A DNA stretch of 5,991 bases from positions 16,810 to 22,800 of the forward strand of contig PATO01000002.1 of NCBI GenBank assembly GCA_002712415.1. The letters run 5' to 3'. Origin of the DNA: Actinomycetota bacterium (GTDB taxonomy: Bacteria > Actinomycetota > Acidimicrobiia > Acidimicrobiales > UBA8592). A program made the translations under genes and the position numbers. Shown here one piece after another: positions 1-5,991 of the stretch (the first letter of the stretch is position 1; each line of letters starts with the position of its first letter). Below the pieces are notes generated by a model that was not told the origin of the DNA, did no database searches, and saw only the letters and a program-made list of their open reading frames with translations.

Positions 1-161
1 TTGCCTTTTCGGCTACCGTACATTCGCAGATCATCCCCACCGGTCGTATTTTCAACTTTTATTATCTCAGCCCCTTGGTTTGCTAGTAAGTGCGTAGCTC
101 CAGGTACGGCTATCATCTGAGCCAGTTCAACTATCTTTACCCCGCTTAGTGGCCCTGTCAC
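1..161 (-). CDS. CaiB/BaiF family (class III) CoA-transferase, N-terminal fragment
   Basis: This is the first 53 residues of a class III CoA-transferase, running off the left edge. Family members move CoA between acyl-CoA and carboxylic acid substrates in the cytoplasm (formyl-CoA:oxalate, carnitine and racemase-type relatives). Seen directly: the N-terminal signature G-P-L-S-G-V-K-I-V-E-L-A (residues 3-14), then a helix ending in Q-G-A-E-I-I-K-V-E (29-37), then G-G-D-D-x-R (41-46), matching the family's nucleotide-fold start. The start is GTG at 161-159, set by AAGGAG five bases upstream. Full-length members are usually about 380-430 residues, so the catalytic Asp and the C-terminal half are missing and the substrate cannot be told. 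It follows the AhpD-like selenoprotein gene by 17 bases on the same strand, suggesting co-transcription. Family assignment is firm; any specific reaction would be a guess. Confidence 0.88.
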   Translation of the reverse strand, partial: MTGPLSGVKIVELAQMIAVPGATHLLANQGAEIIKVENTTGGDDLRMYGSRKG

Positions 162-178: not shown

Positions 179-709
179 CTAACCATGGGCGAAGAATGAT
201 GGGTCTTCGCCAGGGTCAGCTGTCAAGTTAACCGGACAGTCATTCGCAACGTCAAGGACTGCAAGTAGTCTTCCAACTCCAAGACAAAACCCGATTAAGG
301 ATAATAGCTCCAGTATTTGTTGGTCCGAAAAGCTCAACTTCATGCGTTCCCAAAATGCCTCATCAGTTTTAAGCGAGCCATGGTCAAATACAAAGCGCTC
401 CGCTAGCTCCGCGGCTAATTTTTCCTCTTCAGAAAACGCACCTATCTCCGAGTATTCATCTACTCGGTGATAAAGGTCATCATCTAGTCCTTGCTGCATC
501 GCCGATGCAGACCGAGTATCAAGTCATATGTGACAGTCATTGATCTGAGCTATTCGCATTCTTGCCACTTCTCGAACTCTTGTGTCTAACGAAACTTTGG
601 TATATAGAGCGTTCCCTGCTATGCCAATACCCTTTCCGACATCTGGTTGCATATACCAAAGCCTGCTTCGTTCTAACCCTTCACCTTCGGGAATATTGAT
701 TCGTGCCAT
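179..709 (-). CDS. AhpD/carboxymuconolactone-decarboxylase-like selenoprotein (CxxU, in-frame TGA read as Sec)
   Basis: Read through one in-frame TGA (526-524), this is a 176-residue protein of the AhpD/CMD alkylhydroperoxidase-like superfamily. Members are cytoplasmic, all-helical thiol redox enzymes. The signature region reads R-E-V-A-R-M-R-I-A-Q-I-N-D-C59-H-I-[TGA62]-L-D-T-R66. Relatives have Cys at the TGA position (C-x-x-C), and Glu47 lies 12 residues before Cys59, the same spacing as the catalytic Glu and first Cys of AhpD. AhpD's later His is replaced by Arg66. The second half (residues 86-175) has the usual CMD helices, including S-D-Q-Q-I-L-E-L and G-V-G-R-L-L-A-V-L-D, with no other disruption. 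The ATG at 709 is chosen over a TTG at 715 because AAAGG ends six bases before the ATG and abuts the TTG. The frame ends with TAG. AhpD-like selenoproteins with a Sec in this motif are known from bacteria and marine metagenomes. The alternative is a nonsense-mutated pseudogene or a sequencing error. It probably forms an operon with the CoA-transferase. Confidence 0.82.
494..523 (-). promoter_or_regulatory. Candidate bacterial SECIS element directly after the TGA codon
   Basis: On the minus strand, 13 bases after the TGA, there is a perfect 7-bp stem: CTGCATC (510-504), loop GGC (503-501), GATGCAG (500-494). The apical loop begins 21 bases after the TGA and its first two bases are both G. This meets the bacterial SECIS rules as I recall them: apical loop of 3-14 bases, a G in its first two positions, and 16-37 bases from UGA to loop. 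A weak lower helix is also possible, CTTG (523-520) with CAAG (493-490), leaving a nine-base 5' bulge. The element lies inside the coding sequence, as bacterial SECIS elements do, and would recruit SelB with Sec-tRNA. No folding program was run. Confidence 0.75.
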
Positions 710-1919: not shown

Positions 1920-2834
1920 ATGATCCCTCAAAATGAGACCTTTAATGGCACATGGAATTATGAACCCCAATTTTGTACTGAATCTGGTTTTAGACAGCAT
2001 TACGTTGATGAAGGCAGAGGAGAAGTGGTGATTTGCCTGCATGGAGAACCGACTTGGGGCTACTTGTATCGGAATATGATTGATCCACTGGCAGAAGAGT
2101 TTCGGGTAATAGTTCCTGATCATATGGGGTTTGGGAAAAGCGAAACCCCACAAGATCGTGAATACACACTAAAGAGCCATACTGAAAATTTGAGTCGTCT
2201 AATTGAATCCCTTGATTTAGATAACATAACTTTTGTAATGCAGGACTGGGGTGGGCCTATTGGAACTGCATACACCGTACGTAACCCCGCGCGAGTAAGT
2301 CGTCTGGTGTACATGAATACTCTTGCCGGATACGGACGCGTTCCAGATGATATTCAGAGGATACAAGATTCTCGTTGGTTTAAATGGATCGGAGAAGGGC
2401 TTGAAAACGGTCGTACCGAAGCTGTTCTTCGGAATGCCGGATCTACGGTTGTTTCAATAATGAAATTACTTGGTGTTTCGTCGAATGTGATAGATCAAAC
2501 ATGGATAGAAGCTTACAGCTCACCATTTCCAGACTACGAAAGTGCAATAGGGGCCTATGAGTTTCCTATCGACGCGTACCTCGGCCGTATAGGAGAATAC
2601 GTTTTAGATGGGCTTCAGGGAGTTGAAGACCTCACTTCAAAACCGGCAATACTTTTAGAGGGACTTGAGGACTTTGCGATACCCCCGGAATTTGCTATTG
2701 CAGACTTCATGTCGCTTTGGCCATCAAGTCCGGTCATTAAACTTCCCGGTGTTGGCCACTTTTGTCAGGAGGATGCGCCTGAACTACTAGTTGCGAGTAT
2801 CTTGCAATTCCTGAAAAGTAACCCCATCAAATAA
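1920..2834 (+). CDS. Haloalkane-dehalogenase-like alpha/beta hydrolase (HLD-I type motifs)
   Basis: A 304-residue alpha/beta-hydrolase-fold enzyme most like subfamily I haloalkane dehalogenases such as DhlA (about 310 residues), which hydrolyse carbon-halogen bonds to alcohol plus halide in the cytoplasm. Seen directly: the oxyanion-hole motif H-G-E-P-T-W (41-46); the nucleophile motif V-M-Q-D109-W110-G-G, where the Trp after the nucleophile is the halide-binding Trp of dehalogenases; the acid D251 in E-G-L-E-D, at the position used by HLD-I; and the base H280 in G-V-G-H-F. The cap segment A-Y-S-S-P-F-P-D (198-205) resembles DhlA. The second halide-binding Trp is not assigned: W153, W156 and W195 are candidates. 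The ATG at 1920 is the first start after an in-frame TGA at 1905-1907; the ribosome site is weak. An acyl-CoA synthetase gene follows 23 bases later. Epoxide hydrolase or another esterase-like activity remains possible. Confidence 0.85.
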   Translation: MIPQNETFNGTWNYEPQFCTESGFRQHYVDEGRGEVVICLHGEPTWGYLYRNMIDPLAEEFRVIVPDHMGFGKSETPQDREYTLKSHTENLSRLIESLDLDNITFVMQDWGGPIGTAYTVRNPARVSRLVYMNTLAGYGRVPDDIQRIQDSRWFKWIGEGLENGRTEAVLRNAGSTVVSIMKLLGVSSNVIDQTWIEAYSSPFPDYESAIGAYEFPIDAYLGRIGEYVLDGLQGVEDLTSKPAILLEGLEDFAIPPEFAIADFMSLWPSSPVIKLPGVGHFCQEDAPELLVASILQFLKSNPIK

Positions 2835-2849: not shown

Positions 2850-2857
2850 TTGAATTG

Positions 2858-4546
2858 ATGACCTCAGAAGCTGCGATTACCGAAATAATTCAATCTGATC
2901 TTCGAGGACCCGGAGGCGATTGGGAAACTAATTTTGAAGATGTGCTGGGAGAAAATCTACTTGTTTTTAAAAACAGGCATAGATCTATTCGTGAAATGTT
3001 CAATGCAAACATTGCAAAATGGGCTACAAGGGAGTTTCTTGTCCTTGGAGAACGAAGAATTACATACAAAGAACTCAAATCATGTGTTGAGTCAACCGCG
3101 TATAGAATGCAGAATCAATGCGGAATAAAACAGGGAGACAGAGTTGCAATACTTGGTGCGAATTCTCCTGAATGGGTTATCAGTTTCTTCGCTGCAACGC
3201 ACTTAGGGGCAATTGTTGCAGCGCTGAATGGTTGGTGGACAGAAACGGAAATACGTCATGCGCTTGAATTAACGGACCCGTCTCTTGTTGTCGGAGATTC
3301 ACGAAGATTAGCTAGAGCTGGATCACTTTTAGACAATTTTCAAGTTATTGATTTTGATCAAAATCCACTTTTTTTTGAAACCTCTGAAAAGGGGCCAGAG
3401 TATCCGGATTTAGATGAAGATGACCCAGCGCTAATCTTATTTACCTCTGGGACTACCGGAAATTCAAAAGGAGCGCTTCTTTCTCATAGGAGTCTTGTCG
3501 GTTTTGTGGATGGAACCATACACAATGCTTACGAGAAGAAACTAATCGCTCTTACGCTTCTCGGTATTGATATTGCTTCATTGCCAAATGAACAAGAGGT
3601 AATTCTAGCGACCTCCCCACTTTTCCATATATCTGGTTTACCTGCAGGAGTGTTGATGAATATGGCAAATGGAGCAAAGCTTATTTTTAGGAAAGGTAGA
3701 TTTGATCCTGGCGACGTGCTTCGACTTATTGAGGAAGAGAAGGTAACGAATTGGGTAGCAATAGGCGACATGGGGCCCAGAGTTATGATGCACCCTGAAT
3801 TTTTATCTCGCGACACCTCCTCGCTGACTCGTGTTAGTAGCGGAGGTGCTCATCTATCTAAACACATGCAAGACCTTATTGGAAAGCATTTCCCGCAAGC
3901 TGCTCACTCTATAGGGCAGGGCTACGGAAGCAGTGAGTCATGTGGTGTGATCACATCAATTGGTGGACAGGATTTTAAAGATAATCCGGATTCCGCTGGT
4001 AGTCCTTGCTTAGGGTATGAAGTTGAAATCCGAGATTCTGATAATAACCCACTGGGCGAAGGTGATGAGGGTGAAATACACGTTCGATCTGCGTATTCAA
4101 TGTTACGTTACTGGGGAAACGATACTGCAACTGCTGAAACGATAAAGCAAGGTCGATGGCTCGCTATGGGAGATATTGGAAAAATCGTTGATGGAAGGCT
4201 TTACATTAATTCGCGAGCGAGGGATATGATTATCCGGTCTGGTGAGAATATTTATCCTGTTGAGATTGAACATCGCCTCGAAAGCCATCCCTTCATTCAT
4301 GAAGCTGCTGTAGTAGGAGTAGATGACGATGAGAAGGGTCAAATACCGAAAGCGATCATTGTTCTTAATGATAATGGTCAGTTTGAGGTAGATACGTTTT
4401 CAGATTGGTGTTCAGAAACATTAGCTAGTTATAAAGTCCCGGAAATTTGGGAGCACAGGACCTCTGCTCTTCCAAGAACCGCTAGCGGGAAAGTGATTAA
4501 GGGTGCTTTAACCGGTGACCGCGAAGTTAGCAGCTTTGATGATTAA
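2858..4546 (+). CDS. Acyl-CoA synthetase (AMP-forming), ANL superfamily
   Basis: A 562-residue AMP-forming acyl-CoA synthetase/ligase, full length for the family. It activates a carboxylic acid with ATP to an acyl-adenylate, then transfers it to CoA. Seen directly, numbered from the ATG at 2858: the P-loop F-T-S-G-T-T-G-N-S-K-G (195-205); the adenine-site motif G-Y-G-S-S-E (355-360); M-G-D-I-G (437-441), where most relatives have T-G-D; the hinge region R-D-M-I-I-R-S-G-E-N-I-Y-P-V-E-I-E; and the C-terminal catalytic Lys545 in R-T-A-S-G-K. The N-terminal segment (about 1-50) is less conserved, and no signal peptide or membrane helix is apparent. Substrate is not readable from motifs; medium or long-chain fatty acids, or aromatic or terpenoid acids, are all possible. 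It is probably co-transcribed with the upstream hydrolase, which may feed it after alcohol oxidation. Its TAA overlaps the stop of the convergent molybdoenzyme. Confidence 0.93.
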   Translation: MTSEAAITEIIQSDLRGPGGDWETNFEDVLGENLLVFKNRHRSIREMFNANIAKWATREFLVLGERRITYKELKSCVESTAYRMQNQCGIKQGDRVAILGANSPEWVISFFAATHLGAIVAALNGWWTETEIRHALELTDPSLVVGDSRRLARAGSLLDNFQVIDFDQNPLFFETSEKGPEYPDLDEDDPALILFTSGTTGNSKGALLSHRSLVGFVDGTIHNAYEKKLIALTLLGIDIASLPNEQEVILATSPLFHISGLPAGVLMNMANGAKLIFRKGRFDPGDVLRLIEEEKVTNWVAIGDMGPRVMMHPEFLSRDTSSLTRVSSGGAHLSKHMQDLIGKHFPQAAHSIGQGYGSSESCGVITSIGGQDFKDNPDSAGSPCLGYEVEIRDSDNNPLGEGDEGEIHVRSAYSMLRYWGNDTATAETIKQGRWLAMGDIGKIVDGRLYINSRARDMIIRSGENIYPVEIEHRLESHPFIHEAAVVGVDDDEKGQIPKAIIVLNDNGQFEVDTFSDWCSETLASYKVPEIWEHRTSALPRTASGKVIKGALTGDREVSSFDD

Positions 4547-5991
4547 TGCGAGATAAGTTCATCGTCCGTAATTGAGGTAATGTTCACTGGGATTGCGCTC
4601 ATTATCGGCAATCCTGTGATTCGGTCATACCCTACATCTGATGAAACAAGGCGATTAGTCGGAGATCCGATATCGCGGACCTTTTCGTCTGTTATCGAAA
4701 TATCACCCCAAGAGTGCGACATTGAAACCACACCTCTTTTTATGTCTGGGTCGCTTTCAATAACTCCTATAACTGATGACCGTGGTGACGTTATTTTTAA
4801 GAGACCACCATCTGTTGCTCCCAATTCAATTAGATCATCAGGATTCACGTAAACATAATTTGTGGTAGCGACCTTGGCAAGTCCGGGTAGTTCTGAGCCA
4901 AGTGAGTTAAGAGCGTGTTTAAGTCGGCGCCCAACAAGAAGGTATGGGAAAAGTGATTTATCAAATGTGTCTAGTAGTTCGCTTCCAGAGCGTTCAGCCT
5001 TAACTTCGGTAAGTTCCGCATAAACGTCATCAGGGCAAACAGCGAAACGTGCATCATTTTGAGGATCGCCGGGCAGAACTTTTATTGCATTGTCATGATG
5101 AATAGTTCGTTTGTTCTCTCTCCATATGCTCATTGGCAATCTAGCGTTTCCGTAAACATAATCAATTACAGTACTATCCGTCAGGTTCTCCCGAATAGGA
5201 AGATCCCCTCCTGGTAATGAAATTTTTGTGTTATTTCTCTTTGCTATTCCAACGAAGACTTCCCATTCGTTGAGTACATCATCATCTGTATGAATTACTC
5301 TTTCGGCATAATTGGTATAAACAGCGGGGAAACGCCGATCCATTACATTTGGGACATCTTCACGTTCAAGTTGAAGTCGGGGTGCTATGACAAAGTCTGC
5401 AAGTTGTGCGGTAGCTGTCATTCGATGATCAATCACAACTAGTAGCTCAAGGTCACTTAATGCTTTTAGAGTTTTATGCTGATCAGGCCAAGCCTGAACT
5501 GGGTTTCCTCCTGAAACAATCAGCGCCCGCACTTGACCATCTCCTTGTAATAGAATTTCATCGTTTAATGCGTTGGTTAGCATCTCTCCTGGCAATCCTG
5601 ATAGACCTCTGACTCTATGGGGTGCGCCTGGAGTAGGGCTACTAGGGGCAATTACTTGTGCCCGTCTTGTATCTCCTGGTGTGAGCATGTAGGGGCTTTC
5701 AAGAGTTTCACCCTCTTTGAGAACACGTCCGCATAGAACATTTAAAGTAAGCACTAAAGACTCCATTAGCGTTCCGTGTGGAGCCATGTTAGGGCCAGTT
5801 CCAGAGCCTGCTGTTCCTTTAGGCCCTGATGCAAACATCTCGGCTGCTAGCTTTATGTGATTCGATGGCACTTCGCAACGCTCGGCTGCATAATCCGGTG
5901 TGAAGGCAGAGCAAGCTTCTTTTAACTTACGAAGTTGGACTTGGTCTACATATTGTTCGCAAAAACTCGTATCGTGCAGATTATTCTTTAG
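4543..5991 (-). CDS. Molybdopterin-dependent oxidoreductase (DMSO reductase family), C-terminal part
   Basis: The last 482 residues of a molybdopterin enzyme of the DMSO reductase/formate dehydrogenase family, open at the right edge. The frame stays open upstream of an internal GTG at 5871, and the added 40 residues fit the family (F-T-P-D-Y-A-A-E just before the GTG), so that codon is not the start. Seen directly, counting from the edge: a cofactor-binding stretch G-S-G-T-G-P-N-M-A-P-H-G (62-73); V-S-G-G-N-P-V-Q-A-W-P-D (159-170); a D-H-R-M-T-A-T-A-Q-L-A-D segment (188-199); and a C-terminal molybdopterin-dinucleotide-binding domain (about 340-470) with N-P-D-D-L-I-E-L-G-A and S-H-S-W-G-D, ending in the familiar S-A-I-P-V. 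The N-terminal [4Fe-4S] motif and the Mo ligand (Cys, Sec or Ser) are outside the window, so the reaction, electron partner and any Tat signal are unknown. It is convergent with the acyl-CoA synthetase, with stops overlapping in TTAA. Confidence 0.9.
   Translation of the reverse strand, partial: LKNNLHDTSFCEQYVDQVQLRKLKEACSAFTPDYAAERCEVPSNHIKLAAEMFASGPKGTAGSGTGPNMAPHGTLMESLVLTLNVLCGRVLKEGETLESPYMLTPGDTRRAQVIAPSSPTPGAPHRVRGLSGLPGEMLTNALNDEILLQGDGQVRALIVSGGNPVQAWPDQHKTLKALSDLELLVVIDHRMTATAQLADFVIAPRLQLEREDVPNVMDRRFPAVYTNYAERVIHTDDDVLNEWEVFVGIAKRNNTKISLPGGDLPIRENLTDSTVIDYVYGNARLPMSIWRENKRTIHHDNAIKVLPGDPQNDARFAVCPDDVYAELTEVKAERSGSELLDTFDKSLFPYLLVGRRLKHALNSLGSELPGLAKVATTNYVYVNPDDLIELGATDGGLLKITSPRSSVIGVIESDPDIKRGVVSMSHSWGDISITDEKVRDIGSPTNRLVSSDVGYDRITGLPIMSAIPVNITSITDDELISH

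What the first reader, a model, noticed from the sequence alone, without database searches (positions are those of the whole stretch)
524..526. In-frame TGA replaces the second Cys of a CxxC redox motif: probable selenocysteine in an AhpD-like protein
Seen: two apparent ORFs on the minus strand (715-524 and 499-179) are in the same frame, separated by one TGA and eight sense codons (L-D-T-R-S-A-S-A). The TGA follows I-N-D-C-H-I, so the motif is C-x-x-[TGA]-x-x-x-R, where CMD/AhpD relatives have C-x-x-C. The downstream half continues the same family fold without another lesion, and its ATG (499) has no ribosome site. Known: AhpD-like selenoproteins exist in bacteria. Inference: one 176-residue selenoprotein with Sec at residue 62, which ordinary gene callers would split into two hypothetical ORFs.
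Basis: partly seen in the sequence, partly recalled or inferred. Interest (0 to 1): 0.93.

Follow-up and report, generated by a model that had tools for sequence, protein, structure and literature searches.

The report
AhpD-like selenoprotein split by UGA
A likely marine actinobacterium (Acidimicrobiales) carries one AhpD-like gene interrupted by a UGA codon that is very likely read as selenocysteine, so that what databases list as a shortened protein would be part of one full-length enzyme predicted to do thiol/selenol redox chemistry, a new member of a known kind.

Summary
Minus strand 709-179 encodes a 176-residue CMD/AhpD-family protein with TGA as codon 62, where 33 of 33 aligned full-length database homologues have Cys. 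All 18 orthologues found in 20 genomes of the same family have TGA there. The window's own genome encodes SelA, SelB, tRNA-Sec and a SelD that itself has an in-frame TGA. A 7-bp hairpin with a GGC loop follows the TGA, 20 nt lying between TGA and loop: 6 of 6 degenerate codons in it are fixed in the 18 orthologues, against 1 of 91 elsewhere, and 5 of its 7 pairs show two-sided changes among 34 sequences. At the same columns CxxC genes do not pair. The downstream ATG is part of this hairpin. Folding energy alone gives no signal. Fold and profile place the protein with AhpD-like proteins such as PA0269, but two of five AhpD proton-relay residues are replaced, so peroxide chemistry is inferred only. 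CxxU AhpD-like selenoproteins are known from ocean metagenomes since 2005: a new member of a known kind. Less expected is the breadth: in 38 of 39 further TGA-bearing CMD matches fetched from this order, the TGA is at that same codon.

The parts
179..709 (-). CDS of the predicted selenoprotein, 176 aa, predicted Sec at residue 62, stop TAG 181-179
   Evidence: Pfam CMD PF02627 35.4 bits over cut-off 23; 18 orthologues
524..526 (-). in-frame TGA, predicted Sec codon (residue 62)
   Evidence: aligned with Cys in 33 of 33 database homologues; TGA in 18 of 18 orthologues
533..535 (-). codon of Cys59, first residue of the CxxU motif
494..510 (-). SECIS-like hairpin CUGCAUC-GGC-GAUGCAG, apical GGC at 503-501, 20 nt between TGA and loop
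716..719 (-). ribosome-binding-site-like AAGG before ATG 709
   Evidence: purine-rich stretches at about this place in the orthologues listed there
3..161 (-). start of a type III CoA-transferase gene, 17 nt after the selenoprotein stop, with AAGGAG at 172-167; probable operon partner (gene runs out of the window)
   Evidence: Pfam PF02515; found on the same side and strand in 17 of 17 loci L059-L074 and L083
787..1464 (+). nitroreductase-family gene, divergent, 77 nt from the selenoprotein start
   Evidence: Pfam PF00881 55.1 bits; beside the selenoprotein gene in 17 of 17 loci L059-L074 and L083

Best explanation
The sequence at 709-179 (minus strand) is one CMD/AhpD-family gene whose in-frame UGA (526-524) is very likely decoded as selenocysteine, so that the cell would make a single 176-residue protein with a Cys59-His-Ile-Sec62 motif. 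Proposed steps: SelB with Sec-tRNA would bind the hairpin 494-510, whose GGC loop lies 20 nt after the UGA, and insert Sec in place of termination (inferred from conservation, covariation and the presence of selA, selB, selC and selD). The Sec62 selenolate would then attack a peroxide or another oxidised substrate and Cys59 would resolve it, with Glu47 as relay partner and Arg66 in the place of the AhpD histidine (inferred; substrate unknown). The gene is probably co-expressed with the CoA-transferase gene that follows it. The confidence given is for Sec decoding; for peroxide as the substrate I would give about 0.5.
For: Frame and motif. Column 62 is Cys in 33 of 33 database homologues aligned, 38-54% identical (33 full-length proteins chosen from the 120 listed). 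TGA in 18 of 18 orthologues. In the window's genome: tRNA-Sec 67.5 bits, also called by ARAGORN with anticodon TCA; SelB 286.9 bits over cut-off 242.25; a SelA-like gene beside it; SelD 352.3 bits with the TGA in GUGCK. Hairpin: 6 of 6 degenerate codons fixed against 1 of 91 other degenerate codons with an invariant amino acid in 18 orthologues, Fisher p 7e-9; 95.0% of 238 cells paired against 86.0% in shuffles, 5 of 7 pairs with two-sided changes, covariation score 0.316 against 0.139, 0 of 500 shuffles as high, and above all slid controls. At the same columns 34 of 34 Sec rows form 5-7 of 7 pairs (25 form all 7); of 59 Cys rows 3 form 5 and none more. Of the 58 genomes with a match, 31 of 34 with a TGA at the motif have SelB over cut-off or a tRNA-Sec above 57 bits, against 12 of 24 without (p 7e-4); the 3 exceptions are 67, 74 and 83% complete (lists typed). 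In 38 of 39 further TGA-bearing CMD matches the TGA is at this codon. AhpD-like fold.
Against: No protein or selenium data. Folding energy of the 61-nt region is no better than shuffles (z 0.35, 113 of 200 shuffles as good), and local folding energy does not separate Sec from Cys genes (medians -8.8 and -9.2 kcal/mol; the Cys genes are GC-richer), so the hairpin rests on position and covariation. One covariation measure is weak (further pair types 9 against 6.9, 27 of 500 shuffles as high), and one pair (23-27) is open in 7 of 34 rows. The helix was chosen after seeing the Sec sequences, and most of the 59 Cys rows are Mycobacterium. No Rfam family matches it. SelD was not found over cut-off in 8 of 18 genus genomes, all 62-83% complete. 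Two of five AhpD relay residues are not kept, which weakens the peroxidase inference.
Confidence: 0.94

Rival explanations
1. A pseudogene or an assembly error: a nonsense change of Cys to TGA, with two remnant ORFs.
For: A one-base change of TGC or TGT gives TGA, and the window alone would look the same.
Against: TGA in 18 of 18 orthologues from separate genomes, never TAA or TAG among 120 CMD rows; Ka/Ks below 0.06 on both sides of the TGA wherever Ks could be estimated; intact frame downstream.
Confidence: 0.01
2. Two separate proteins: a short N-terminal piece ending at the TGA and a 106-residue protein started at ATG 499.
For: Databases hold 106-residue entries as proteins of their own (about 50 of the 120 listed), and ATG 499 is kept in all 18 orthologues.
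Against: ATG 499 is part of the invariant hairpin and has no Shine-Dalgarno-like stretch before it; the Met is absent in more distant Sec homologues such as L052, L080 and L086, and the 33 Cys homologues aligned are single proteins of 158-174 residues.
Confidence: 0.02
3. UGA means another amino acid in this organism (genetic code change or suppression).
For: UGA is read in frame.
Against: tRNA-Sec, SelB, SelD and a SelA-like protein are encoded; the UGA sits opposite a conserved Cys, not Trp or Gly; the other long ORFs of the window and of L048 are open under table 11, where TGA is a stop. Use of TGA as a terminator elsewhere in the genome was not counted.
Confidence: 0.02
4. A selenoprotein as above, but not a peroxidase: a Sec-dependent reductase of some other substrate in a catabolic cluster. 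(This overlaps the best explanation, which leaves the substrate open.)
For: AhpD relay His replaced by Arg66, which is invariant in the 37 rows, and His/Tyr by Ile61; neighbours are a CoA-transferase, a nitroreductase-family protein, an alpha/beta hydrolase and an acyl-CoA ligase.
Against: The CxxC-type motif and the relay Glu are kept; the nearest solved relative PA0269 has weak H2O2-reducing activity (PMC3141380, abstract and passages).
Confidence: 0.35

Closest known systems
AhpD-like and CMD-domain selenoproteins of ocean metagenomes (Sargasso Sea, PMC1088965; GOS 'AhpD-like 2', pfam02627, CxxU, PMC2398784)
   Same: CMD/AhpD family, CxxU motif, SECIS-like element with a guanosine in a small apical loop (passages)
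   Different: The term Actinobacteri- does not occur in the main text of either paper; here lineage, Sec machinery, synteny and paralogues are given. Whether this very gene is among their sequences could not be tested.
NCBIfam NF053654 YciW-related (seleno)protein
   Same: Best NCBIfam match (43.5 bits)
   Different: Far below the family's cut-off of 310 bits, so not a member
AhpD-like PA0269 of Pseudomonas aeruginosa (2o4d, 2ijc, 7xw1) and Atu0492 (2gmy)
   Different: 16-21% identity; Cys in place of Sec; relay His55 aligns with Arg66 and Tyr50 with Ile61
Debrominase Bmp8 (6ohi, 6ohj)
   Different: 13-16% identity, a Cys enzyme solved with a bromopyrrole; no evidence of the same reaction here

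Membership tests
Bacterial selenoprotein | In-frame UGA aligned with Cys of homologues | tested here: met
Bacterial selenoprotein | selA, selB, selC, selD in the genome | tested here: met
   SelA recognised by its translation beside SelB only, not by a family search
Bacterial selenoprotein | Stem-loop just after the UGA with G among the first loop bases | tested here: met
   the usual UGA-to-loop distance of 16-37 nt is recalled, not read
Bacterial selenoprotein | Sec shown in the protein | not testable with these tools
   no peptide or labelling data
CMD superfamily (PF02627) | Pfam match over the curated cut-off | tested here: met
   35.4 bits, cut-off 23
AhpD (functional) | CxxC (here CxxU) in an all-helical fold with Glu 12 residues before the first Cys | tested here: met
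   Glu47, Cys59, codon 62
AhpD (functional) | Full five-residue proton relay Glu-Cys-His/Tyr-Cys-His | tested here: not met
   Ile61 and Arg66 stand in place of His/Tyr and His (relay from PMC3141380)
AhpD (functional) | Peroxidase or AhpC-adaptor activity | not testable with these tools
   needs an assay
NF053654 YciW-related (seleno)protein | Score over 310 bits | tested here: not met
   43.5 bits

The most novel reading that the evidence does not exclude
Acidimicrobiia have made selenocysteine a standard option of the whole CMD/AhpD superfamily, with Sec at one fixed active-site codon in many separate subfamilies, and this member is not an antioxidant but a Sec-dependent reductase (for instance a deiodinase-like reductive dehalogenase, as its fold relative Bmp8 and the haloalkane-dehalogenase-like and nitroreductase-family neighbours would allow) in a catabolic gene cluster.
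Probability: 0.08. Interest if true: 0.72.

Novelty: new member of a known kind. Interest (0 to 1): 0.42.

Why it matters
It joins a database fragment to the active site it lacks, ties a selenoprotein type described from ocean reads to a bacterial order together with its Sec machinery, and shows that automatic annotation of these bacteria cuts such genes at the active site. Sec and Cys forms switch at least 8 times on the family tree, which makes the cost and benefit of Sec testable between homologues.

Tried and rejected
Folding energy of 61 nt around the TGA gave no signal (z 0.35), nor did local folding energy against Cys genes. Rfam gave one match up to E 1, a miRNA family at E 0.13 elsewhere in the window. 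A first alignment of four coordinate pieces was badly framed and dropped. PADLOC gave no family for the protein. Literature: selenoprotein with Acidimicrob- gave 2 papers, neither on this topic by title and abstract start; Bmp8 with debrominase gave none in this library, and the search listed one survey that I did not open. An earlier count said 39 of 39 TGA-bearing CMD matches at CxxU; the residue-by-residue alignment corrects this to 38 of 39 (L150 has CKVC at the motif and its TGA elsewhere). G087 was taken out of the TGA set because L024 has CxxC at the motif and its TGA elsewhere. For the tree, 34 of 114 rows, all Cys and mostly Mycobacterium, were thinned out before building. L002, a distant paralogue, was left out of the covariation alignment (34 of 35 sequences given). 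Of the 120 proteins listed, 33 were aligned.

Full report
What is there. On the minus strand an ORF from ATG 709 runs through TGA 526-524 to TAG 181-179; read through, it is a 176-residue protein with the TGA as codon 62. AAGG stands at 719-716, six bases before the ATG, and purine-rich stretches stand at about this place in the 18 orthologues. Pfam CMD matches at 35.4 bits, cut-off 23. A model made with Cys for Sec is confident (pLDDT 86.0, pTM 0.84), and the solved folds nearest to it are AhpD-like proteins.

The organism. Contigs of its genus mates have the same lengths as contigs titled mostly Acidimicrobiales, Acidimicrobiaceae or Candidatus Microthrix; isolate names and a Tara source (P0010) point to the sea, so order and habitat are inferred.

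The codon. Of 99 genomes searched, 58 have a match to the protein. Of the 20 genomes of the family, 18 have the orthologue (17 of 18 in the genus and G018; G010, 72% complete, and G019 lack it), and all 18 have TGA at the codon. In 33 of 33 full-length database homologues aligned, 38-54% identical, it is Cys. About 50 of the 120 proteins listed are 106-residue pieces that start at the ATG after the TGA, without a Pfam domain, for instance P0003 (63 members, 27 contigs); relatives of this piece at 62-70% identity bear the names hypothetical protein or carboxymuconolactone decarboxylase family protein of Acidimicrobiaceae or Acidimicrobiales (P0053, P0067, P0070).

The machinery. The window's genome (84% complete) encodes SelB at 286.9 bits, cut-off 242.25, a SelA-like protein directly beside it (recognised from its translation), tRNA-Sec at 67.5 bits with anticodon TCA, and SelD at 352.3 bits with its own in-frame TGA in GUGCK. 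Ten of 18 genus genomes have SelD over cut-off, each with one in-frame TGA; the 8 without are 62-83% complete. Of the 58 genomes with a match, 31 of 34 with a TGA at the motif have SelB over cut-off or a tRNA-Sec above 57 bits, against 12 of 24 without (Fisher p 7e-4; outside the genus 15 of 16 against 12 of 24, p 0.005). The exceptions G001, G011 and G018 are 74, 67 and 83% complete, and G001 has a SelD with in-frame TGA.

The hairpin. CUGCAUC-GGC-GAUGCAG begins with the 14th base after the UGA, and 20 bases lie between UGA and loop. In the 18 orthologues codons +5 to +11 never vary: 6 of 6 degenerate codons there use one codon each, against 1 of 91 other degenerate codons with an invariant amino acid. 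In 34 distinct Sec sequences 95.0% of 238 cells pair, 5 of 7 pairs have changes on both sides, and the covariation score exceeds all 500 shuffles and all slid controls; the count of further pair types is weaker (27 of 500 shuffles as high) and one pair is open in 7 rows. RNAalifold finds six of the same pairs. At the same columns 59 distinct Cys genes form 0-5 pairs (3 form 5), the 34 Sec genes 5-7. Against: folding energy alone shows nothing.

The wider pattern. I fetched 39 further TGA-bearing CMD matches, not all that it listed. In 38 of 39 the TGA aligns with the Sec codon; the exception, L150, has Cys there. Their motifs and surroundings differ widely (CGYU, CHTU, CHYU, CVHU, CPIU and others); I did not define subfamilies by a tree. 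The window's own genome has two further CxxU genes, both on contig 17. On a quick tree of 80 rows of the close family, Sec and Cys switch at least 8 times, at least 4 by well-supported branches; direction is not inferred.

Function. Glu36, Cys48 and Cys51 of AhpD-like PA0269 align with Glu47, Cys59 and codon 62; Tyr50 and His55 align with Ile61 and Arg66 (relay residues from PMC3141380, abstract and passages). Arg66 is invariant in the 37 rows. The CoA-transferase gene starts 17 nt after the stop with its own AAGGAG, and a nitroreductase-family gene faces the selenoprotein gene across 77 nt. Both neighbours are found in 17 of 17 loci (L059-L074, L083), the CoA-transferase about 0.1-0.2 kb away in several and about 1.3 kb away in L071 and L072. 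I infer a selenol/thiol reductase, perhaps of hydroperoxides; the substrate is open. The likeness of Bmp8 to deiodinases, used in the novel case, is recalled and comes from no call.

What is known. CxxU AhpD-like and CMD-domain selenoproteins were reported from the Sargasso Sea (27 and 4 sequences, PMC1088965) and from GOS (AhpD-like 1, 299 and AhpD-like 2, 70; PMC2398784); passages seen. AhpD-like proteins made up 9.5% of selenoprotein genes in a later marine study (PMC9402790, passage). AhpD-like and CMD-like CxxU families stand in a 2026 review (PMC13188914, passages), where Actinobacteri-, Actinomycetota and Acidimicrob- do not occur in the main text. Actinobacteria were called selenoprotein-rich in 2006, with Symbiobacterium and Rubrobacter in the passages seen (PMC1794560). 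The searches (15 of 25 papers listed) listed no paper that by title or abstract start treats selenoproteins of Acidimicrobiia; this covers only the library held.

Verdict. A selenoprotein of a known kind in a lineage for which I found no account in this library: high confidence in Sec, moderate confidence in peroxide chemistry.

Noticed in passing
G000:C17:7171-7455 (L002, L180) and G000:C17:42863-42976 (L216): Two more CMD-family frames of the window's genome with TGA at the CxxU position (CGYU, CFYU).
   Followed up: partly
L166 1994-903 (-): SelD with in-frame TGA in GUGCK: the selenophosphate synthetase is itself a likely selenoprotein.
   Followed up: partly
L146-L185: 38 of 39 TGA-bearing CMD matches from the order have the TGA at the same active-site codon.
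   Followed up: partly
window 2855-4546: AMP-dependent acyl-CoA ligase; best NCBIfam is steroid-24-oyl-CoA synthetase, 545.1 bits, below its cut-off of 750.
   Followed up: no
window 1920-2834: Alpha/beta hydrolase most like haloalkane dehalogenases, below their cut-offs.
   Followed up: no
window 4543-5991: C-terminal part of a molybdopterin oxidoreductase; its N-terminal part outside the window was not checked for a Sec or Cys ligand.
   Followed up: no
L061, L077, L088: Records titled Euryarchaeota archaeon, Planctomycetaceae bacterium and Bifidobacterium breve carry loci that group with Acidimicrobiia-type sequences; probably mislabelled or misbinned MAG contigs.
   Followed up: no
L048: Scattered unknown residues (X) in the translated genes, so some bases of the held assembly are ambiguous or N.
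   Followed up: no
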